In this document: in pieces, positions 2,964 to 19,200 of the stretch
Layout: each line of letters starts with the position of its first letter
How positions within the stretch are numbered: the stretch's first letter is position 1
Assembly (NCBI RefSeq): GCF_030345075.1
Contig: NZ_CP128361.1
Location: 5,704,001 to 5,768,000, forward strand
Length of the DNA stretch: 64,000 bases
Direction of reading: 5' to 3'
DNA from: Solwaraspora sp. WMMA2065
Lineage (GTDB): Bacteria > Actinomycetota > Actinomycetes > Mycobacteriales > Micromonosporaceae
Notes under the pieces: generated by a model
Database searches by the model: none
What the model was told of the DNA's origin: nothing
Seen by the model: only the letters and a program-made list of their open reading frames with translations
Program-made: the position numbers and the translations under genes

Positions 2964-4067
2964 GTGAATCGTAAGTCCCTCCGGCTGGCCGCCCTGCCGG
3001 CCGCCGTCATGCTTACCCTCGGCGTGGCCGCGTGCGGCGACGACGGCGACAACGGCTCGGAGTCTGGCAACGGCTCCGACACCTCGGTCAGCGGGAACCT
3101 CGCTGGCGCCGGCGCCTCATCCCAGGGCGCCGCGATGGAGGCGTGGATCGCCGGATTCACCTCCGTCGCTCCGGACGCGACCGTCACCTACGACCCGATC
3201 GGCTCCGGCGGTGGCCGCGAGCAGTTCACCAGCGGCGGCACCCAGTTCGGCGGCACCGACGCGTACCTCGACGAGGAAGAGATCGCCGCCGCCCTGGAGA
3301 CCTGCGGCGAGCAGGGCTTCATCGAGTTCCCCGGCTACATCAGCCCGATCGCCGTGGCGTACAACCTGCCGGGCGTCGAGACGCTGAACCTGTCGCCGTC
3401 GGTGATGGCCCGGATCTTCGACGTCAAGATCACCAACTGGAACGACCCGGCGATCGCCGAGCTCAACCCGGACGCCGCGCTGCCCGACCTGGCGATCACC
3501 ACGGTGCACCGCTCGGACGAGTCGGGCACCACCGAGAACTTCGTCGACTACCTGGCCAAGGCCGCGCCGGCCGACTGGCCGTACGAGGTTGACGGCAACT
3601 GGCCCGCAGCGGGCGGCGAGGCCGCCCCGCAGAACCAGGGCGTCGCCGCCGCGCTGCGCGGTGGCGAGGGCACCATCGGCTACATTGACGCCTCTCTCGC
3701 CGGCGATCTCGGCGTCGCCGCGGTCCAGGTGGGCGAGGACTTCGTCGAGTACTCGGCCGAGGCGGCCGCCGCCGTCGTCGACGCCGCCGAGACCGTTCCT
3801 GGTCGTCCGGAGTTCAGCTTCGCCATCGACCTGCCCCGGGACACCGCCGAGGCCGGCGTCTACCCGATCGTGCTGGTTTCCTACCAGCTGGCCTGCGTCA
3901 CCTACGACAGCCAGGAGACGGTTGACCTGGTGAAGGCCTTCTACTCGTACGTGATCAGCGAGGAAGGCCAGCAGGCCGCCGCCGAGAACGCCGGCTCCGC
4001 GCCGATCTCCGACGAGCTGCGCAGCCAGGCGCAGTCCGCGCTGGACGCGATCACTGTCGCCGGCTGA
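2964..4067 (+). CDS. pstS: Phosphate ABC transporter substrate-binding lipoprotein PstS
   Basis: A 367-residue periplasmic-type binding protein anchored as a lipoprotein. The signal peptide ends in a VAAC lipobox with the lipidated cysteine at residue 24, followed by a Gly/Ser/Asp linker. GAGASSQGAAMEAW starts the phosphate-binding fold, and HRSDESGTTENFVDYL is the conserved phosphate loop. It captures inorganic phosphate outside the membrane and hands it to PstC-PstA. The GTG start follows AGAGAGGC. It is first in pstS-pstC-pstA-pstB, with a PHO box upstream. A 116-base gap separates it from pstC. Confidence 0.96.
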   Translation: MNRKSLRLAALPAAVMLTLGVAACGDDGDNGSESGNGSDTSVSGNLAGAGASSQGAAMEAWIAGFTSVAPDATVTYDPIGSGGGREQFTSGGTQFGGTDAYLDEEEIAAALETCGEQGFIEFPGYISPIAVAYNLPGVETLNLSPSVMARIFDVKITNWNDPAIAELNPDAALPDLAITTVHRSDESGTTENFVDYLAKAAPADWPYEVDGNWPAAGGEAAPQNQGVAAALRGGEGTIGYIDASLAGDLGVAAVQVGEDFVEYSAEAAAAVVDAAETVPGRPEFSFAIDLPRDTAEAGVYPIVLVSYQLACVTYDSQETVDLVKAFYSYVISEEGQQAAAENAGSAPISDELRSQAQSALDAITVAG

Positions 4068-4183
4068 GTCGAGCACCACGTCCAGCCCCTGCGACCCAGG
4101 TCCGGACGGTCACCCGGTGGCCGTCCGGACCTGCGGCGTATCCCGTACCGCCCGTCACGACACGGCCTGAGGAGGCGTAATCC

Positions 4184-5218
4184 GTGACAAAGCCCGCCAC
4201 CGCGCAGAGCGGTACCCCATCGAGTGATCCGCCGCCCGGCGGCGACTCGCCGCGCGGCACGTCAACGGGCGAGCCGCCGGACGCGGAGACGCGTCGCCGG
4301 GGCCGGTCCGGCAAGCGGATCGGTGACCAGATCTTCTCCGGCACCGCCGTCGGCGCCGGTGTGCTCATCCTGGTCACCCTCGCCGCGGTCGCGGCCTTCC
4401 TGCTCTACGAGGGCCTCCCCGCCCTGGTCGCCGACCCCGAGGAGCTGCCCGGCGGCGAAGGATTCATCGCGTACGTCACCCCGCTGCTGTTCGGCACGGT
4501 CCTCGCCGCGGTGATCGCGCTGGTGGTCGCCACCCCGCTGGCGATCGGCATCGCGCTGTTCATCTCGCACTACGCGCCGCGCAGGATCGCCGCCGGTCTG
4601 GGCTACCTGGTCGACCTGCTGGCCGCCGTGCCCAGCGTCGTGTACGGACTGTGGGGCATCTTCTTCCTCGCCCCGAACATCGTCCCGGTCTACCGCTGGC
4701 TGGAGGAGCACCTCGGCTTCATCCCGTTCTTCGCCGGCCCTGCCTCAGCCACCGGCCGGACCATGCTGACCGCCGGTCTGGTGCTGGCGGTGATGATCCT
4801 GCCGATCATGACCGCGGTGAACCGGGAGGTCTTCCTGCAGACCCCCCGGCTGCAGGAGGAAGCCTCCCTGGCGCTCGGCGCCACCCGCTGGGAGATGATC
4901 CGGATGACCGTGCTGCCGTTCGGCCGGTCCGGGATCATCAGCGGCAGCATGCTCGGGCTGGGCCGGGCGCTCGGTGAGACGCTGGCCGTCGCGATGGTGC
5001 TCTCCGCCTCCGACGTGATCACCATCAACCTGATCGACTCGGTCAACAGCAGCACCATCGCCGCCAACATCGCGTTGGACTTCCCCGAGTCCAGCGGGCT
5101 CGCGGTGAACGCGCTGATCGCCACCGGCCTGGTGCTGTTCGCGCTGACCTTCGTCGTCAACTTCGCCGCCCGGGCCGTCGTCGCCCGTCGGCGCGACTTC
5201 TCGGGAGCGAACGCATGA
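4184..5218 (+). CDS. pstC: Phosphate ABC transporter permease PstC
   Basis: A 344-residue inner-membrane permease with a hydrophilic Pro/Gly-rich N-terminal tail of about 45 residues, then six predicted membrane segments. The EAA loop (EEASLALGATRWEMIRMTV) that docks the ATPase is clear. Together with PstA it forms the phosphate channel. The GTG start at 4184 has an AGGAGG ribosome-binding site. Its last codons overlap the pstA start by four bases (ATGA), so the two are translationally coupled. Confidence 0.95.
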   Translation: MTKPATAQSGTPSSDPPPGGDSPRGTSTGEPPDAETRRRGRSGKRIGDQIFSGTAVGAGVLILVTLAAVAAFLLYEGLPALVADPEELPGGEGFIAYVTPLLFGTVLAAVIALVVATPLAIGIALFISHYAPRRIAAGLGYLVDLLAAVPSVVYGLWGIFFLAPNIVPVYRWLEEHLGFIPFFAGPASATGRTMLTAGLVLAVMILPIMTAVNREVFLQTPRLQEEASLALGATRWEMIRMTVLPFGRSGIISGSMLGLGRALGETLAVAMVLSASDVITINLIDSVNSSTIAANIALDFPESSGLAVNALIATGLVLFALTFVVNFAARAVVARRRDFSGANA

Positions 5219-13709: not shown

Positions 13710-14051
13710 ATGACCGCTGCGACCACACCGAACGCCCCGACCGCGGCGGGCTGCGCCGCCCCGGACCAGGCGGCACCGCTGCCGGCCAGCGTCGACCTGG
13801 CCAAGGAGACCGTGATCACCGGGACCGTGCGGTCCGCCGGCGGCGAGGCCGTGGCCGGCGCGTACGTGCGGCTGCTGGACGCCACCGGCGAGTTCACCGC
13901 CGAGGTGGTCACCTCGCCGGCCGGCCAGTTCCGGTTCTTCGCCGCACCGGGCAGCTGGACCCTGCGGGCCCTGTCCCGGCACGGCAACGGCGACACCCCG
14001 GTGACCGCCGCCCAGGGAGTCAACGAGGTCTCGGTGACCGTCGGCAGCTGA
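13710..14051 (+). CDS. sseC: SseC-like DUF1416 protein
   Basis: A 113-residue protein starting two bases after the sulfurtransferase stop. The N-terminus has a GCAAPDQ motif with a conserved cysteine. The rest (about 30-110) is a carboxypeptidase-regulatory-like beta fold (VITGTVRSAGGEAVAGAYVR and the segment around QFRFFAAPGSWTLRAL). In mycobacteria the cysA2-sseC2 pair has the same order. Its role in sulfur transfer is inferred from this linkage; the biochemistry is not established. Confidence 0.9.
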   Translation: MTAATTPNAPTAAGCAAPDQAAPLPASVDLAKETVITGTVRSAGGEAVAGAYVRLLDATGEFTAEVVTSPAGQFRFFAAPGSWTLRALSRHGNGDTPVTAAQGVNEVSVTVGS

Positions 14052-14068
14052 CGCCCGGCCCGACCCGA

Positions 14069-14113
14069 CGACAGGCCGCCGCCCCGGAGTTTTCCCGGGG
14101 CGGCGGCCTGTCG
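14069..14113 (+). terminator. Terminator hairpin after sseC
   Basis: A perfect 19-bp GC-rich stem (14069-14087 with 14095-14113) with loop AGTTTTC, 18 bases after the sseC stop. The following 296 bases to the next gene at 14410 hold no other feature I can support. Confidence 0.85.
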
Positions 14114-14471
14114 GCTTCGTGACCGACATTGGCGGCGGATCACCCGTCGCCGGTTCCCGCTGTCGCCCTGTGGACAGCGGAAACGGCCGACCGACGGCGT
14201 CACCCTGGTCGCTCCGGCCGGTGGCCACACCGACAAGGCACCAGCGCCCGACGGGACGGCGCGGCAGTACGAACTGACTTGATGACGTCACTCTCTGGTG
14301 AATTGGGCGGCCCGTCACCCACAATTCTTCGTGGCGGTAGCGGGCGTACGGCGAATCGGGTTTCGGTTCTTCCGATGCCTGCGAAAATTGCTCATCCCAT
14401 GGGGGAATCATGCGAAAGACTGTCGGTGTGAGGGGCCTCGCGTTTTCCGGACAGTGGTTCGGCCGGTTCTT

Positions 14472-15356
14472 TCACGCCGCGATTTGAAGGTTCTCGAACT
14501 CTGCGTGGACTTCCCGGGGAGGTCGGTAGCCCACCGCTGAATGCAGACGCTGACGATTGTACCAGAATTCGATGTAGGCAGTAACGTCCCGGCGTGCCGC
14601 CTCACGAGTGGGATACTTCACACGCGACACGCGTTCGTTCTTCAGCGCACCGAAGAACGATTCCGCCATCGCATTGTCGAAACAAATTCCGGTCCGGCCA
14701 GCAGATCGCCGCAACCTCAGATCCCGAAGCGTTCTGCCGTAGTCGTCCGACATGTAGTTGCTGCCCCGGTCCGAATGAAAGATGGCGTTCTTCCTGAGTT
14801 CGCGATTCCGGGCGGCGTTACGGATGGCGCGGGATATCAACGGCGTCTGGTAGTGGTCGTCCATCGCGTATCCGATGACTTCCTTCGTGCAGCAGTCGAT
14901 GACGGTCGCCAGATACAGCCACCCCTCGCCGGTCGGGATGTACGTGATGTCGCCGACGAGCTTCTCGCCAGGCGCGTCGGCGGTGAACTCCCGGCCGACG
15001 AGGTCAGGCACCGTGCCGGACGACGACTGGGTGAGACCCCACCGCCTCGGGCGGGGCTGGCACGGCACGAGCCCGAGCTCGCGCATCAGCTGGCGGACGA
15101 GTTCCGGCCCGGCGGACACGCCCTGGCGCCGCAGTTGCGCGTGGACACGTCGATGCCCGTAGGTGCCGTCGGACGCGGCGAACACCTCCTCGATGGTCGA
15201 TCGAAGGTGGGCGCGGCGGGTGGCGGTCGCGGAGTCGGGGCGGGTTCGCCATTCGTAGTATCCGGACCTGGACACGCCGAGTTGTTCGCACATGAAGTCG
15301 ACGGGGTAGGCGTACTTCGCGGTGTCGAGTCGCATCGTCTCGATGAACTCGTACAA
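14472..15356 (-). CDS. IS3-family transposase OrfB (DDE integrase domain)
   Basis: A 294-residue catalytic part. The N-terminal half holds an HTH_21-like segment (YGHRRVHAQLRRQG), and the rve core carries the DDE triad in GDITYIP (Asp), HSDRGSNY (Asp) and ESFFGALKNE (Glu). The C-terminal WYNRQRLHSAVGYRPP is typical. The start shown is a TTG; the frame is open upstream into orfA in the -1 frame (through SRGVLREGPSVTS), so the active enzyme is probably an OrfAB fusion made by -1 frameshifting. Confidence 0.93.
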   Translation of the reverse strand: MYEFIETMRLDTAKYAYPVDFMCEQLGVSRSGYYEWRTRPDSATATRRAHLRSTIEEVFAASDGTYGHRRVHAQLRRQGVSAGPELVRQLMRELGLVPCQPRPRRWGLTQSSSGTVPDLVGREFTADAPGEKLVGDITYIPTGEGWLYLATVIDCCTKEVIGYAMDDHYQTPLISRAIRNAARNRELRKNAIFHSDRGSNYMSDDYGRTLRDLRLRRSAGRTGICFDNAMAESFFGALKNERVSRVKYPTREAARRDVTAYIEFWYNRQRLHSAVGYRPPREVHAEFENLQIAA

Positions 15357-15361
15357 GCTCG

Positions 15362-15655
15362 TTACCGAGGGTCCTTCGCGAAGTACGCCGCGGCTTTTTT
15401 CAGGAAGCTGTTCTCCATTTCGAGTTCCCGGTTGCGACGTTCGAGTTCCTTCAGTCGAGCGCGCTCGTCGACGCCGATCGGTGGGCTGTCCTGGGCGCCG
15501 CTGTTTTCCCGCCGGTACTGGCGGACCCAGGAACGGAGCGTCTCCGGGTGAACGTCGATCTCCCGGGCAACCTGCGACACTGGCTTGTTCGACTGTAGAA
15601 CGAGTTGCACTGCTTCTTCACGGAACTCTGGGGTGTATGAGCTTATGCGTGCCAT
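15362..15655 (-). CDS. IS3-family OrfA (helix-turn-helix)
   Basis: A 97-residue protein: an HTH_Tnp_1 domain (YTPEFREEAVQLVLQSNKPV and VHPETLRSWVRQYR) and a C-terminal leucine-zipper-like coil (RLKELERRNRELEMENSFLK). It binds the element ends. A run of six A (minus strand) at 15395-15400 near its end is the probable frameshift site into orfB, though its phase is CTG AAA AAA GCC rather than the classical A AAA AAG. Confidence 0.92.
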   Translation of the reverse strand: MARISSYTPEFREEAVQLVLQSNKPVSQVAREIDVHPETLRSWVRQYRRENSGAQDSPPIGVDERARLKELERRNRELEMENSFLKKAAAYFAKDPR

Positions 15656-16201
15656 CGCGCTTCTTCCCTCGATTTTCCTTACAGGGTAACCTTATTGGCT
15701 CCCTGTCCGGAATCCTCGGGGCACCTCAGTGTCCTGACTGCGGCGATGCTCGGGCTGGTCACCTCGATGACCATCGCCGCACCTGCGAGTGCTGCACCCA
15801 GCCTGCGGGTGCACAGCGTCCAGTACCACCCGAACGGCGTCAACGACGGCAGTGGGACGTTCGCCAACCGGGAATGGCTGCAACTGGTCAACCGGGGTAA
15901 GGAAGCGGTCAACCTGCGGGGCTACACGGTGCACAACAAGAATGGCCGGACTTACCGGTTCGGCGACGTCGTCATTCCTGGAAAAGGCGGCCGGGTATGG
16001 CTGCGTTCCGGTGCCGGCGACGACACCGCACGGACCGTGTACTGGAACACGGCTGGTTTCGTGTGGGATGTCGAAGGTGACAAGGCATTCCTGCGGAACC
16101 GCAAGGGCCACGCCGTGCACACCTGCTCGTGGTCGTATGTGAAGGGCCGGGACTGGGTGCGATGCCCGGTCAACCCGTGACGATTCCGGGTTGACCGCCG
16201 G

Positions 16202-16238
16202 CGGGTGCCGGGCCAGAGCTGGGCTGGCCCGGCACCCG
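16202..16238. terminator. Bidirectional terminator hairpin
   Basis: CGGGTGCCGGGCCAG (16202-16216) pairs perfectly with CTGGCCCGGCACCCG (16224-16238) across a seven-base loop. It is followed by TTCTC and separates the convergent LTD gene remnant from the subtilase gene. Confidence 0.75.
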
Positions 16239-16285
16239 TTCTCACCATCGGTCAGACACGCCGTCGGTCGACCCGGTCACCCGGG

Positions 16286-19200
16286 TCAGATCCCGCCGAG
16301 GCGGGCCGGGCAGGGATCGACCGGTTCGAGCACGCTGTCGACCGTGGTGACGATCCCGGCCGGCAGCCGTTCCTGCCGGGCCTGCGGCACCCAGCCGTCC
16401 TTCGCGGAGATGATCTCGTACTGCCCGCGTGGCAGCCAGTACGCGTACCCGCCATCGGCACCGGTGCGCAGCGTGTAGCCGGTGCCCGGATCGGTCAGCG
16501 AGTTCAGCCGGATCGTCGCCCCGGCTACTCCGACCTCGACCCCGGCGCAGCTGACCCCGGTGACGGTGCCCTGTACCTTCGCCCAGGAGGCCGGCGGCGA
16601 GACGTTCATCTGCACGTCCACCTGGCCGACCGGGTACGGGGTGTCGGACCGCAACCCGAGGGTCGCCGCGTACCGGCCGGGCTGGTCCACGCCGGCCTCG
16701 GCGGTCGCCGCCAGCGTGACGGTGACCGTCCGGGAGGCACCAGGGGCAAGGGTGAAGCTGCCAGGGTCGGTGACCAGCCACGGCAGGTCGGCCGCGGCGT
16801 CGCACAGCTCCAGCCCGGCGAGCACCTCCACCTGCGCCGAACCGACGAACGAGCTCGGCGATCCGCCGACCTTGTACGCCCCGCAGGCACCGGCGCCCCG
16901 GTACCGGGCGAACTCGGTGTTCGGCAGGTCACGCCAGACCCCGGCGGCCGGGTCGAAGCCGACCGTACGGTTCGTCACCGTGGTGGACGCCCCGGTCACC
17001 CCGCCGGCGATCACCAGCAGGCCACCGGCCGCCGCGTACTGCCCGCCCCACAGGTCCAACGGCAGGTCCGGCAACGGGCTCCAGGCGTCGGTGGCCGGGT
17101 CGTAGGCGTACGTCGACCGGTACTCGACGGCGCCGGCGCCGCCGGCGCAGTACGCCAGCTCACCGATCCCGCCACAGGCCAACCAGGACGCGGCAACCGG
17201 ATAGTCGGCCCGGGACCGGAACGTGCCGGTGCCGGTGTCGAACGCCAGCACCGTACGCGAGTCGGTGCAGGTGCCGTCGGTGCAGCCGCCGATCAGGTAG
17301 ATCGTGCCGCCGATGACGGCGGACCCGGCTGCGGCCCGCGGCGCGGGGCTGGTCACCCCGGACAGCGTGGCCCACGTCCCGGTCGCCGGGTCGAACACGT
17401 CGACGCTCGCCACCGGAGTCCCACCGGCACCCCATCCGCCGAACAGGTACAGCTTGCCGCCGGCCGCGGTGAGCACCGGCTTGCTGCGGGCCGTCGGCAG
17501 GTCGGGCAGGGCGCTCCAGACGTCGGTGACCGGGTCGTAGACCCAGGCGTCCCGCTCGGTGCCGGTGGTGCTGCCCCCGCCGACCGAGTAGACCTTGCCG
17601 TCGAGCGTGGCGGCCGCGTTGTCGAAGACCGCCGTCGGGTGGTCCGGGGCCCGCGTCCAGGCATCGGCGGCCGTCCCGGCCGCGGCTCCGGCCGCCTCCG
17701 TCGCGGCGGTGATCCGGGTCGGCGCGGCACCGGCCGGGGCGCCGTACGCCGGACCCTGCCAGGCCCTGCTGATTCCCTTGACCTTGTGTTCGGCCAGCGG
17801 GGCACCGTCGCCGGCCAGCAGGCTGAACCCACCGTCGCCGGTCAGCATCTCGACTTCGGCCGGCGCGCTGCCGGTGTTGGTCACCGTCACCTTGGCCTTG
17901 CGGGTGCTGCCGTACGGCTGGTGGGACACGACCGGGCTGGTCGGGCTGATCGCCAACCGGCCGGCCTTGACCGAGAAGTCGGCCCGGCGGGCCCGGTCGG
18001 CGACCACCGTCACCGTCCGGCTCCGCACCTGGTACGGCGCTCGCGTCGCGGTGAACTCCTGCTCGCCGACCAGTGGCGAGAAGAGCTGGTAGAAGCCGTC
18101 GGGCAGGGCCGGGTCGTCCGGCGTGGCGGCGGAGACCGCCCGTACCGTCGGGTCGGTGGCGCTGGCCACCGTGACGCCGTTCAGCGCGGCCCCGGTGTTG
18201 TGGTCGGTGGTGTTGCCGACCAGCAGGCCACCGGGCAGCGGAGTGCAGCTGCGGTCGACCACCTCGACGTCGTCGACCTGCCACCACCAGGCGTAGCTGC
18301 CCTGGAAGTGGAACCGGATCAGCACTTCGTCGGCACCGGCCACCGAGGTCAGCGGGATCTCCTCGGTGCGCGGCCCGCGTCGGCTGGTGGTGTGCCGCCA
18401 CACGTTGGTCCAGCTGGCGCCGCCGTCGACCGAGACACCGATCTCGGCGCTGTCGCTGAGCCCCACCGCCCGCCAGTCGCTGGCGAACCGCAGGTACGGC
18501 GCGTCCGCTCCGGACAGGTCCAGCATCGGGGTGACCAGGTCGGTGTCCTGGACCTCACCGACGCCGAGCGCGTCACTGTCGATGTTGGCGAAGCCGCCGT
18601 CGCCACCGGTCAGGTTGCCCCGGGAGCCGATGTCGGAGAACTCCCAACCGCCGCCGTCGGCGCGGTTCACCACCGACCAGCCGTCCGGGGTGTCGGCGGT
18701 CGGGAAGCTCTCGGCGAGCAGCGGGTCGCCGAAGCTGGCCACGTATCCGGGTGCGATGCACTCGGCGGTGACCGGCACCGCCAGGTGCACGGTGCGGTCG
18801 GTGTCGCCGGCCGGCACCTCCACCCGGGCCGGCTGGTACCCGGCGAGCGTCGCCGTGGCGACCAGCGTCACGGCGGTGCCGCCGGGCACGGTCAGCGTGT
18901 AGCGGCCGGACGCCGGGTCGGTGTAGGTGACCGTCTCCGGCCGTCCGTCGACCTCGACCCGGGCGTAGAGCGGCCAGCCGTGGCCGGACGCGTCGGTGAC
19001 CCGGCCGCTGAGCGTGACCAGGGTGGTGGCGGCCAGGTCGAAGTCCTGCTCGACGGTGCCGTCCTCGGCGACCGTGACCGTGGCGCTGTCCGGCTGGTAG
19101 CCGAACGCGCTGGCGGTGACGGTGTACTCACCGGTCGGCAGGGTCAGCGAGTAGTCGCCGTCGGTGCCGGTGGTGACGCTGCGGTCGCCGGTGGAGACGG

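What the first reader, a model, noticed from the sequence alone, without database searches (positions are those of the whole stretch)
14410..16180. IS3 element caught inside the signal-peptide codons of a secreted LTD gene
Seen directly: the ATG with ribosome-binding site at 14410, six codons, a GTG target duplication on both sides of a 1300-bp element with 26-bp inverted ends, and an uninterrupted LTD frame after 15731. Removing the element plus one duplication restores a textbook signal peptide. This dates the insertion as recent and shows what the strain lost. The element end could also offer a new start for an unsecreted form.
Basis: partly seen in the sequence, partly recalled or inferred. 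Interest (0 to 1): 0.72.

Follow-up and report, generated by a model that had tools for sequence, protein, structure and literature searches.

The report
Jumping gene recently broke secreted-protein gene
A common kind of bacterial jumping gene has landed a few codons into a gene for a small secreted protein, cutting it off from its start; the related species examined still carry the gene whole, so this is a recent and ordinary gene loss.

Summary
A 1300-bp IS3-family element (14429-15728, transposase on the minus strand) sits just after codon 6 of a Lamin Tail Domain (LTD) gene that starts at 14410, between a 3-bp GTG duplication. All 6 of 6 other genus genomes held carry the gene uninterrupted at the same locus, without the element. 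In the nearest (G001) the empty site is identical for 110 bases across the junction. This genome has two more identical full copies of the element; two sister species have near-identical copies elsewhere. The remnant frame has no stop and shows no excess of amino-acid changes, so the insertion is young. The most likely effect is plain loss of function: upstream region, ribosome-binding site, start codon and the charged start of the signal peptide are cut off. Ordinary; low interest.

The parts
14276..14290 (+). 15-base motif with an 8-bp palindrome, 119 bases before the ATG; found upstream of this gene in all 7 genus genomes; candidate regulatory site left attached to the stub
   Evidence: Exact match once in each of 7 of 7 genomes, each upstream of this gene
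14410..14428 (+). Start codon and first six codons plus one base of the LTD gene (5' stub); translation would run on into the element for a 25-aa peptide
   Evidence: corresponding start in 6 of 6 relatives
14426..14428 (.). Left copy of the 3-bp target duplication (GTG)
14429..15728 (-). IS3-family insertion sequence, 1300 bp
14429..14454 (.). Terminal inverted repeat, right end (transposase 3' side)
14472..15356 (-). OrfB of the transposase (rve integrase core)
   Evidence: Pfam PF00665 2.2e-21, PF13276 3.2e-15; NCBIfam NF033516 8.5e-91. The frame is open from 15617
15362..15655 (-). OrfA of the transposase (HTH)
   Evidence: Pfam PF01527 3.6e-19; NCBIfam NF033516 1.6e-18
15394..15400 (-). 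A6G run, candidate -1 frameshift site joining OrfA to OrfB
   Evidence: OrfB lies in the -1 frame of OrfA; the run reads AAA AAA G in the OrfA frame; frameshifting itself is inferred
15695..15697 (+). In-frame TTG inside the element end, AGGG 8 bases upstream; candidate element-born start of the remnant (161 aa)
15703..15728 (.). Terminal inverted repeat, left end (transposase 5' side)
15729..15731 (.). Right copy of the 3-bp target duplication (GTG)
15732..16180 (+). Remnant of the LTD gene: rest of the signal peptide (hydrophobic region, AxA-type site) and whole LTD domain, no internal stop
   Evidence: Pfam PF00932 4.3e-16
15746..15748 (+). First in-frame ATG of the remnant; no clear ribosome-binding site by eye

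Best explanation
An IS3-family element inserted just after codon 6 of a conserved gene for a small secreted LTD protein and duplicated three target bases (shown by the empty site in relatives). The insertion separates upstream region, ribosome-binding site, start codon and the positively charged first residues from the rest (shown). The protein is therefore most likely no longer made or exported (inferred). The event is young (inferred from the intact duplication, identical sister copies, intact remnant and absence in six sister species). The next gene downstream runs the other way, so a polar effect is unlikely (inferred).
For: Borders, ends and duplication. Uninterrupted gene in 6 of 6 other genus genomes with the corresponding start. 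Same flanking genes and no element at the locus in 6 of 6. 110-base identity across the empty site in G001, 37 in G005. Three identical full copies in this genome, each with a 3-bp duplication. Codons changed in this genome alone: 14 synonymous / 4 nonsynonymous, against 18 / 6 for the two nearest relatives together; 9 codons where all three differ were not assigned. One match to this protein in the own genome; the only other LTD match there lies in a 1489-aa frame, with a counterpart in all 7 genomes (below the cut-off in 3 of them).
Against: The remnant frame is open into the element, with an in-frame TTG 34 bases inside its end and AGGG 8 bases before it, so some product cannot be excluded. 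The unchanged substitution pattern fits a working gene as well as a young break. No expression data. One genome per species, so a strain quirk, a culture artefact and fixation in the species cannot be told apart.
Confidence: 0.93

Rival explanations
1. The element end supplies a new start (TTG 15695), and perhaps a promoter, so that the LTD protein is still made with a different N-terminus.
For: In-frame TTG with AGGG 8 bases before it; frame open from 15641 to 16180; hydrophobic region and AxA-type site lie downstream of the insertion; no excess of amino-acid changes in the remnant.
Against: No sigma-70-like promoter in 14000-16300 on either strand (0 found; shuffles mean 0.2, so weak evidence). 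The transposase genes run the other way. The product's first residues would carry no R or K, while the six intact relatives have one to three in their first six (by reading). A young insertion gives the same substitution pattern.
Confidence: 0.05
2. The two halves were never one gene; the ATG stub is a chance start beside the element.
For: None found.
Against: 6 of 6 relatives have one uninterrupted frame with the corresponding start and the same flanking genes; the junction is identical for 110 bases in G001.
Confidence: 0.005
3. The insertion is old and fixed in the lineage, the remnant being a relic.
For: Only one genome of the species is held, so fixation within the species is untested.
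Against: Absent in six of six sister species; three copies identical over 1300 bp; remnant without stop or frame loss.
Confidence: 0.02

Closest known systems
IS3 family of insertion sequences (orfA/orfB, DDE transposase)
   Same: OrfA and OrfB in overlapping frames, OrfB in the -1 frame; rve integrase core and HTH; TGA...TCA ends; 3-bp target duplications; NCBIfam IS3 model. On plasmids, 16 of 219 matching records cover at least 80% of the element; the ten listed cover all of it at 73.5-75.1% identity (nine Streptomyces, one Embleya), seven of them with 'IS3 family transposase' annotated.
   Different: Nothing of substance seen. The A6G run reads AAA AAA G in the OrfA frame, not A AAA AAG as I recall for IS911. 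No named element could be assigned: ISfinder was not available.
Small secreted LTD (PF00932) proteins
   Same: Signal peptide (by eye) plus one LTD domain; orthologues in 6 of 6 other genus genomes and more distant matches in the family and order.
   Different: Here split by an insertion. I found no function for the single-domain form. LTD also occurs in the extracellular nuclease ExeM (one passage of PMC6085458), and an LTD protein is listed as a putative cell-surface protein of Corynebacterium glutamicum (one passage of PMC12021427).

Membership tests
IS3 family insertion sequence | DDE/rve transposase matching the IS3 model | tested here: met
   NF033516 304.9 bits for OrfB, cut-off 160; PF00665 2.2e-21
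IS3 family insertion sequence | Two overlapping frames with OrfB in -1 and a slippery run | tested here: met
   that frameshifting takes place is inferred
IS3 family insertion sequence | Terminal inverted repeats | tested here: met
   26 nt, 81%
IS3 family insertion sequence | Short target duplication (3-5 bp, range recalled) | tested here: met
   3 of 3 full copies in this genome; over three genomes 12 of 20 full copies show a direct repeat (11 of 3 bp, one of 4); 8 of 20 show none
LTD (PF00932) secreted protein gene | LTD domain over the curated cut-off | tested here: met
   59.7 bits, cut-off 34.3
LTD (PF00932) secreted protein gene | Sec signal peptide in the intact form | tested here: inconclusive
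   Charged start, hydrophobic stretch and AxA-like end recognised by eye in the six relatives; no signal-peptide predictor on hand
LTD (PF00932) secreted protein gene | Gene uninterrupted in this genome | tested here: not met
   Interrupted just after codon 6
LTD (PF00932) secreted protein gene | Gene expressed in this strain | not testable with these tools
   No expression data

The most novel reading that the evidence does not exclude
The remnant is expressed from the TTG in the element end, so the insertion has swapped the first six residues of the signal peptide for an element-born n-region without positive residues, and thereby changed the amount or route of export rather than destroying the gene.
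Probability: 0.05. Interest if true: 0.35.

Novelty: new member of a known kind. Interest (0 to 1): 0.12.

Why it matters
It is a clean, well-controlled natural knockout: this genome lacks a working copy of a gene that the six other genus genomes keep, with dN well below dS in all 15 pairs of intact copies. It shows an IS3 element that has moved recently and is shared almost unchanged with another species (4 differences in 1300 bases, against 6-16% in the chromosomal genes compared at this locus). Its main use is correct annotation: the LTD gene should be marked as interrupted, not called as a 161-aa protein starting inside the element.

Tried and rejected
Finding named relatives in genome contigs: the first scan gave 68 pattern matches and no relative; the second, with an alignment of six relatives, gave two distant Bacteroidota MAG loci of 33-38% identity, not used. 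The organism is therefore not named here. A promoter in the element end was sought with the sigma-70 scan and not found; actinobacterial promoters often differ (recalled) and the chance expectation was 0.2, so this is weak. The same scan found three terminator-like sites on the + strand inside the element, against 1.8 expected; not pursued. Rfam on 13900-16500 gave 0 matches at the gathering threshold. Papers: 'lamin tail domain' + 'secreted' + 'actinobacteria' gave 0 papers; 'lamin tail domain' + 'bacteria' + 'extracellular' gave 17, 12 listed, of which I saw one passage each of PMC6085458 and PMC12021427. For IS3 one paper was listed; I saw six passages of PMC11708052. A search with insertion sequence, signal peptide, gene disruption, IS3 and Micromonospora (any four) listed four papers, none opened. 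Empty sites of the other two full copies: L002 has one in G001; for L003 none was found, its right flank having no adjacent match in G001 or G005. L055 and L056, L068-L070 and L071-L074 were fetched and not analysed.

Full report
What is there. The window holds an ATG at 14410 with GGGGG four bases upstream, six codons and one base, and then a 1300-bp element at 14429-15728. Its ends are inverted repeats of 26 nt with 81% match, and GTG stands on both sides, at 14426-14428 and 15729-15731. After the element the LTD frame runs open to the stop at 16178-16180. Taken without the element and one GTG, the frame is 155 codons long and begins with what reads as a signal peptide: two positive residues, a hydrophobic stretch and an AxA-type end. 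That judgement is by eye; no predictor was on hand.

The element. On the minus strand it codes OrfA (15362-15655) and OrfB (14472-15356). OrfB matches the NCBIfam IS3 transposase model at 304.9 bits (cut-off 160) and OrfA its first 86 of 369 positions; Pfam finds rve and HTH domains. OrfB lies in the -1 frame of OrfA, with an A6G run in the overlap. The own genome holds three full copies, identical to the last base, each with a 3-bp duplication (GTG, TGT, GTT), and several partial ones (40 of 172 first-look candidates were scored). Of the 7 genomes of the genus, G005 has 8 full copies and G006 has 9; G001, G002 and G004 have only one short weak match each and G003 none. The nine G006 copies are identical to each other and differ from this one at 4 of 1300 positions; those of G005 differ at 17-19, one of them also by a 1-base gap. 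Over the three genomes 12 of 20 full copies are flanked by a direct repeat of 3 or 4 bases, 8 are not; decay of the repeat, recombination between copies and adjacent deletions are the explanations named in the abstract of PMC11708052. In a draw of 200 genomes of the family 103 had some match, many of them short, with two candidates scored per genome; beyond the genus the best-scoring was 70% identical over the whole length. On plasmids the ten best records cover the whole element at 73.5-75.1%.

Was it one gene? Yes. A search with the remnant over 151 genomes (own included) found matches in 49; the 6 other genus genomes all had one, at 69-94% identity. In all six the frame is uninterrupted, has the corresponding ATG and is 155-176 codons long from it. 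The same genes flank it in all six: sulfurtransferase and DUF1416 genes upstream, the large converging gene downstream; the element is at the locus in none. Spacing is not identical everywhere: G004 has a second LTD gene in between, and G002 has about 1.7 kb between DUF1416 and LTD matches. In G001 the DNA is identical for 110 bases across the junction, in G005 for 37. The exact doubled-GTG junction is in none of the six, a test that tells for G001 and G005 and little for the other four.

How old? Young. The duplication is intact, the three copies are identical, six sister species lack the insertion, and the remnant has no stop. Codons changed only in this genome are 14 synonymous and 4 nonsynonymous, against 12 and 3 in G005 only and 6 and 3 in G001 only; 9 codons where all three differ were not assigned. 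So no sign of relaxed constraint has built up. The rival reading, that the gene still works, would give the same counts. No absolute date can be given.

Effect. Start codon, ribosome-binding site, upstream region and the charged n-region are on the far side of the element. Translation from the old ATG would give 25 residues. Within the element the in-frame candidate start is TTG 15695, with AGGG 8 bases upstream; the first in-frame ATG of the remnant, 15746, has no clear site by eye. The promoter scan of 14000-16300 found none on either strand, with 0.2 expected by chance. If TTG 15695 were used, the hydrophobic core and the cleavage site would stay, so 'unsecreted' does not follow; the n-region would have lost its positive residues. 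Two C-terminal cysteines invariant in the six intact proteins are kept in the remnant and fit a protein made for export (inference). The own genome has one match to this protein; the other LTD match lies in a 1489-aa frame with a counterpart in all seven genomes, below the cut-off in three.

Horizontal spread. This element and the G006 copies differ by 0.3%, while the genes compared at the LTD locus differ by about 6-16% between the same two genomes (the LTD figure covers only part of that gene). That points to recent exchange between species. With G005 the element differs by about 1.4% and the flanking genes by 2-4%, which does not decide it.

Verdict. Observation and main interpretation are right. 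It is an ordinary recent IS insertion. Novelty is only that of one more case.

Noticed in passing
window 14276-14290: GACTTGATGACGTCA, with the palindrome TGACGTCA, occurs exactly once without mismatch in each of 7 of 7 genus genomes, each time upstream of this LTD gene, 116-123 bases before the ATG. With one mismatch there are three further places in the 7 genomes; the reversed control pattern gave five matches. A candidate gene-specific regulatory site, still attached to the stub here.
   Followed up: partly
window 14396-14412: CCCATGGG overlaps the ribosome-binding site here and in the six relatives. Its ATG is in frame with the gene in four relatives but out of frame here, in G001 and in G006, which supports 14410 as the true start.
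   Followed up: no
L064 about 3524-4815, counted on the reverse complement (G004): G004 has a second LTD gene (about 47% identity to this one) some 400 bases upstream of the orthologue.
   Followed up: no
window 15854-16153: Here the LTD gene is 87-92% identical per 150 bases between this genome, G001 and G005, also between the two intact relatives, while most other windows of the 8-kb locus are 93-100%; exceptions at 14251 and 17654.
   Followed up: partly
L004/L008 and L005/L006/L007 (own genome): Two other copies of the element are split near the same end, at element positions 1262-1265 and 1256-1263, as if other elements had inserted there twice.
   Followed up: no
L002 1501-2800: Another identical copy lies at the end of a 296-aa open frame (660-1550) that looks by eye like an integrase-type transposase; G001 has the empty site.
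   Followed up: partly
full-length copies in G005 and G006: 8 of 20 full-length copies show no target duplication: 3 of 9 in G006 and 5 of 8 in G005, none of 3 in this genome, suggesting rearrangements between copies.
   Followed up: no
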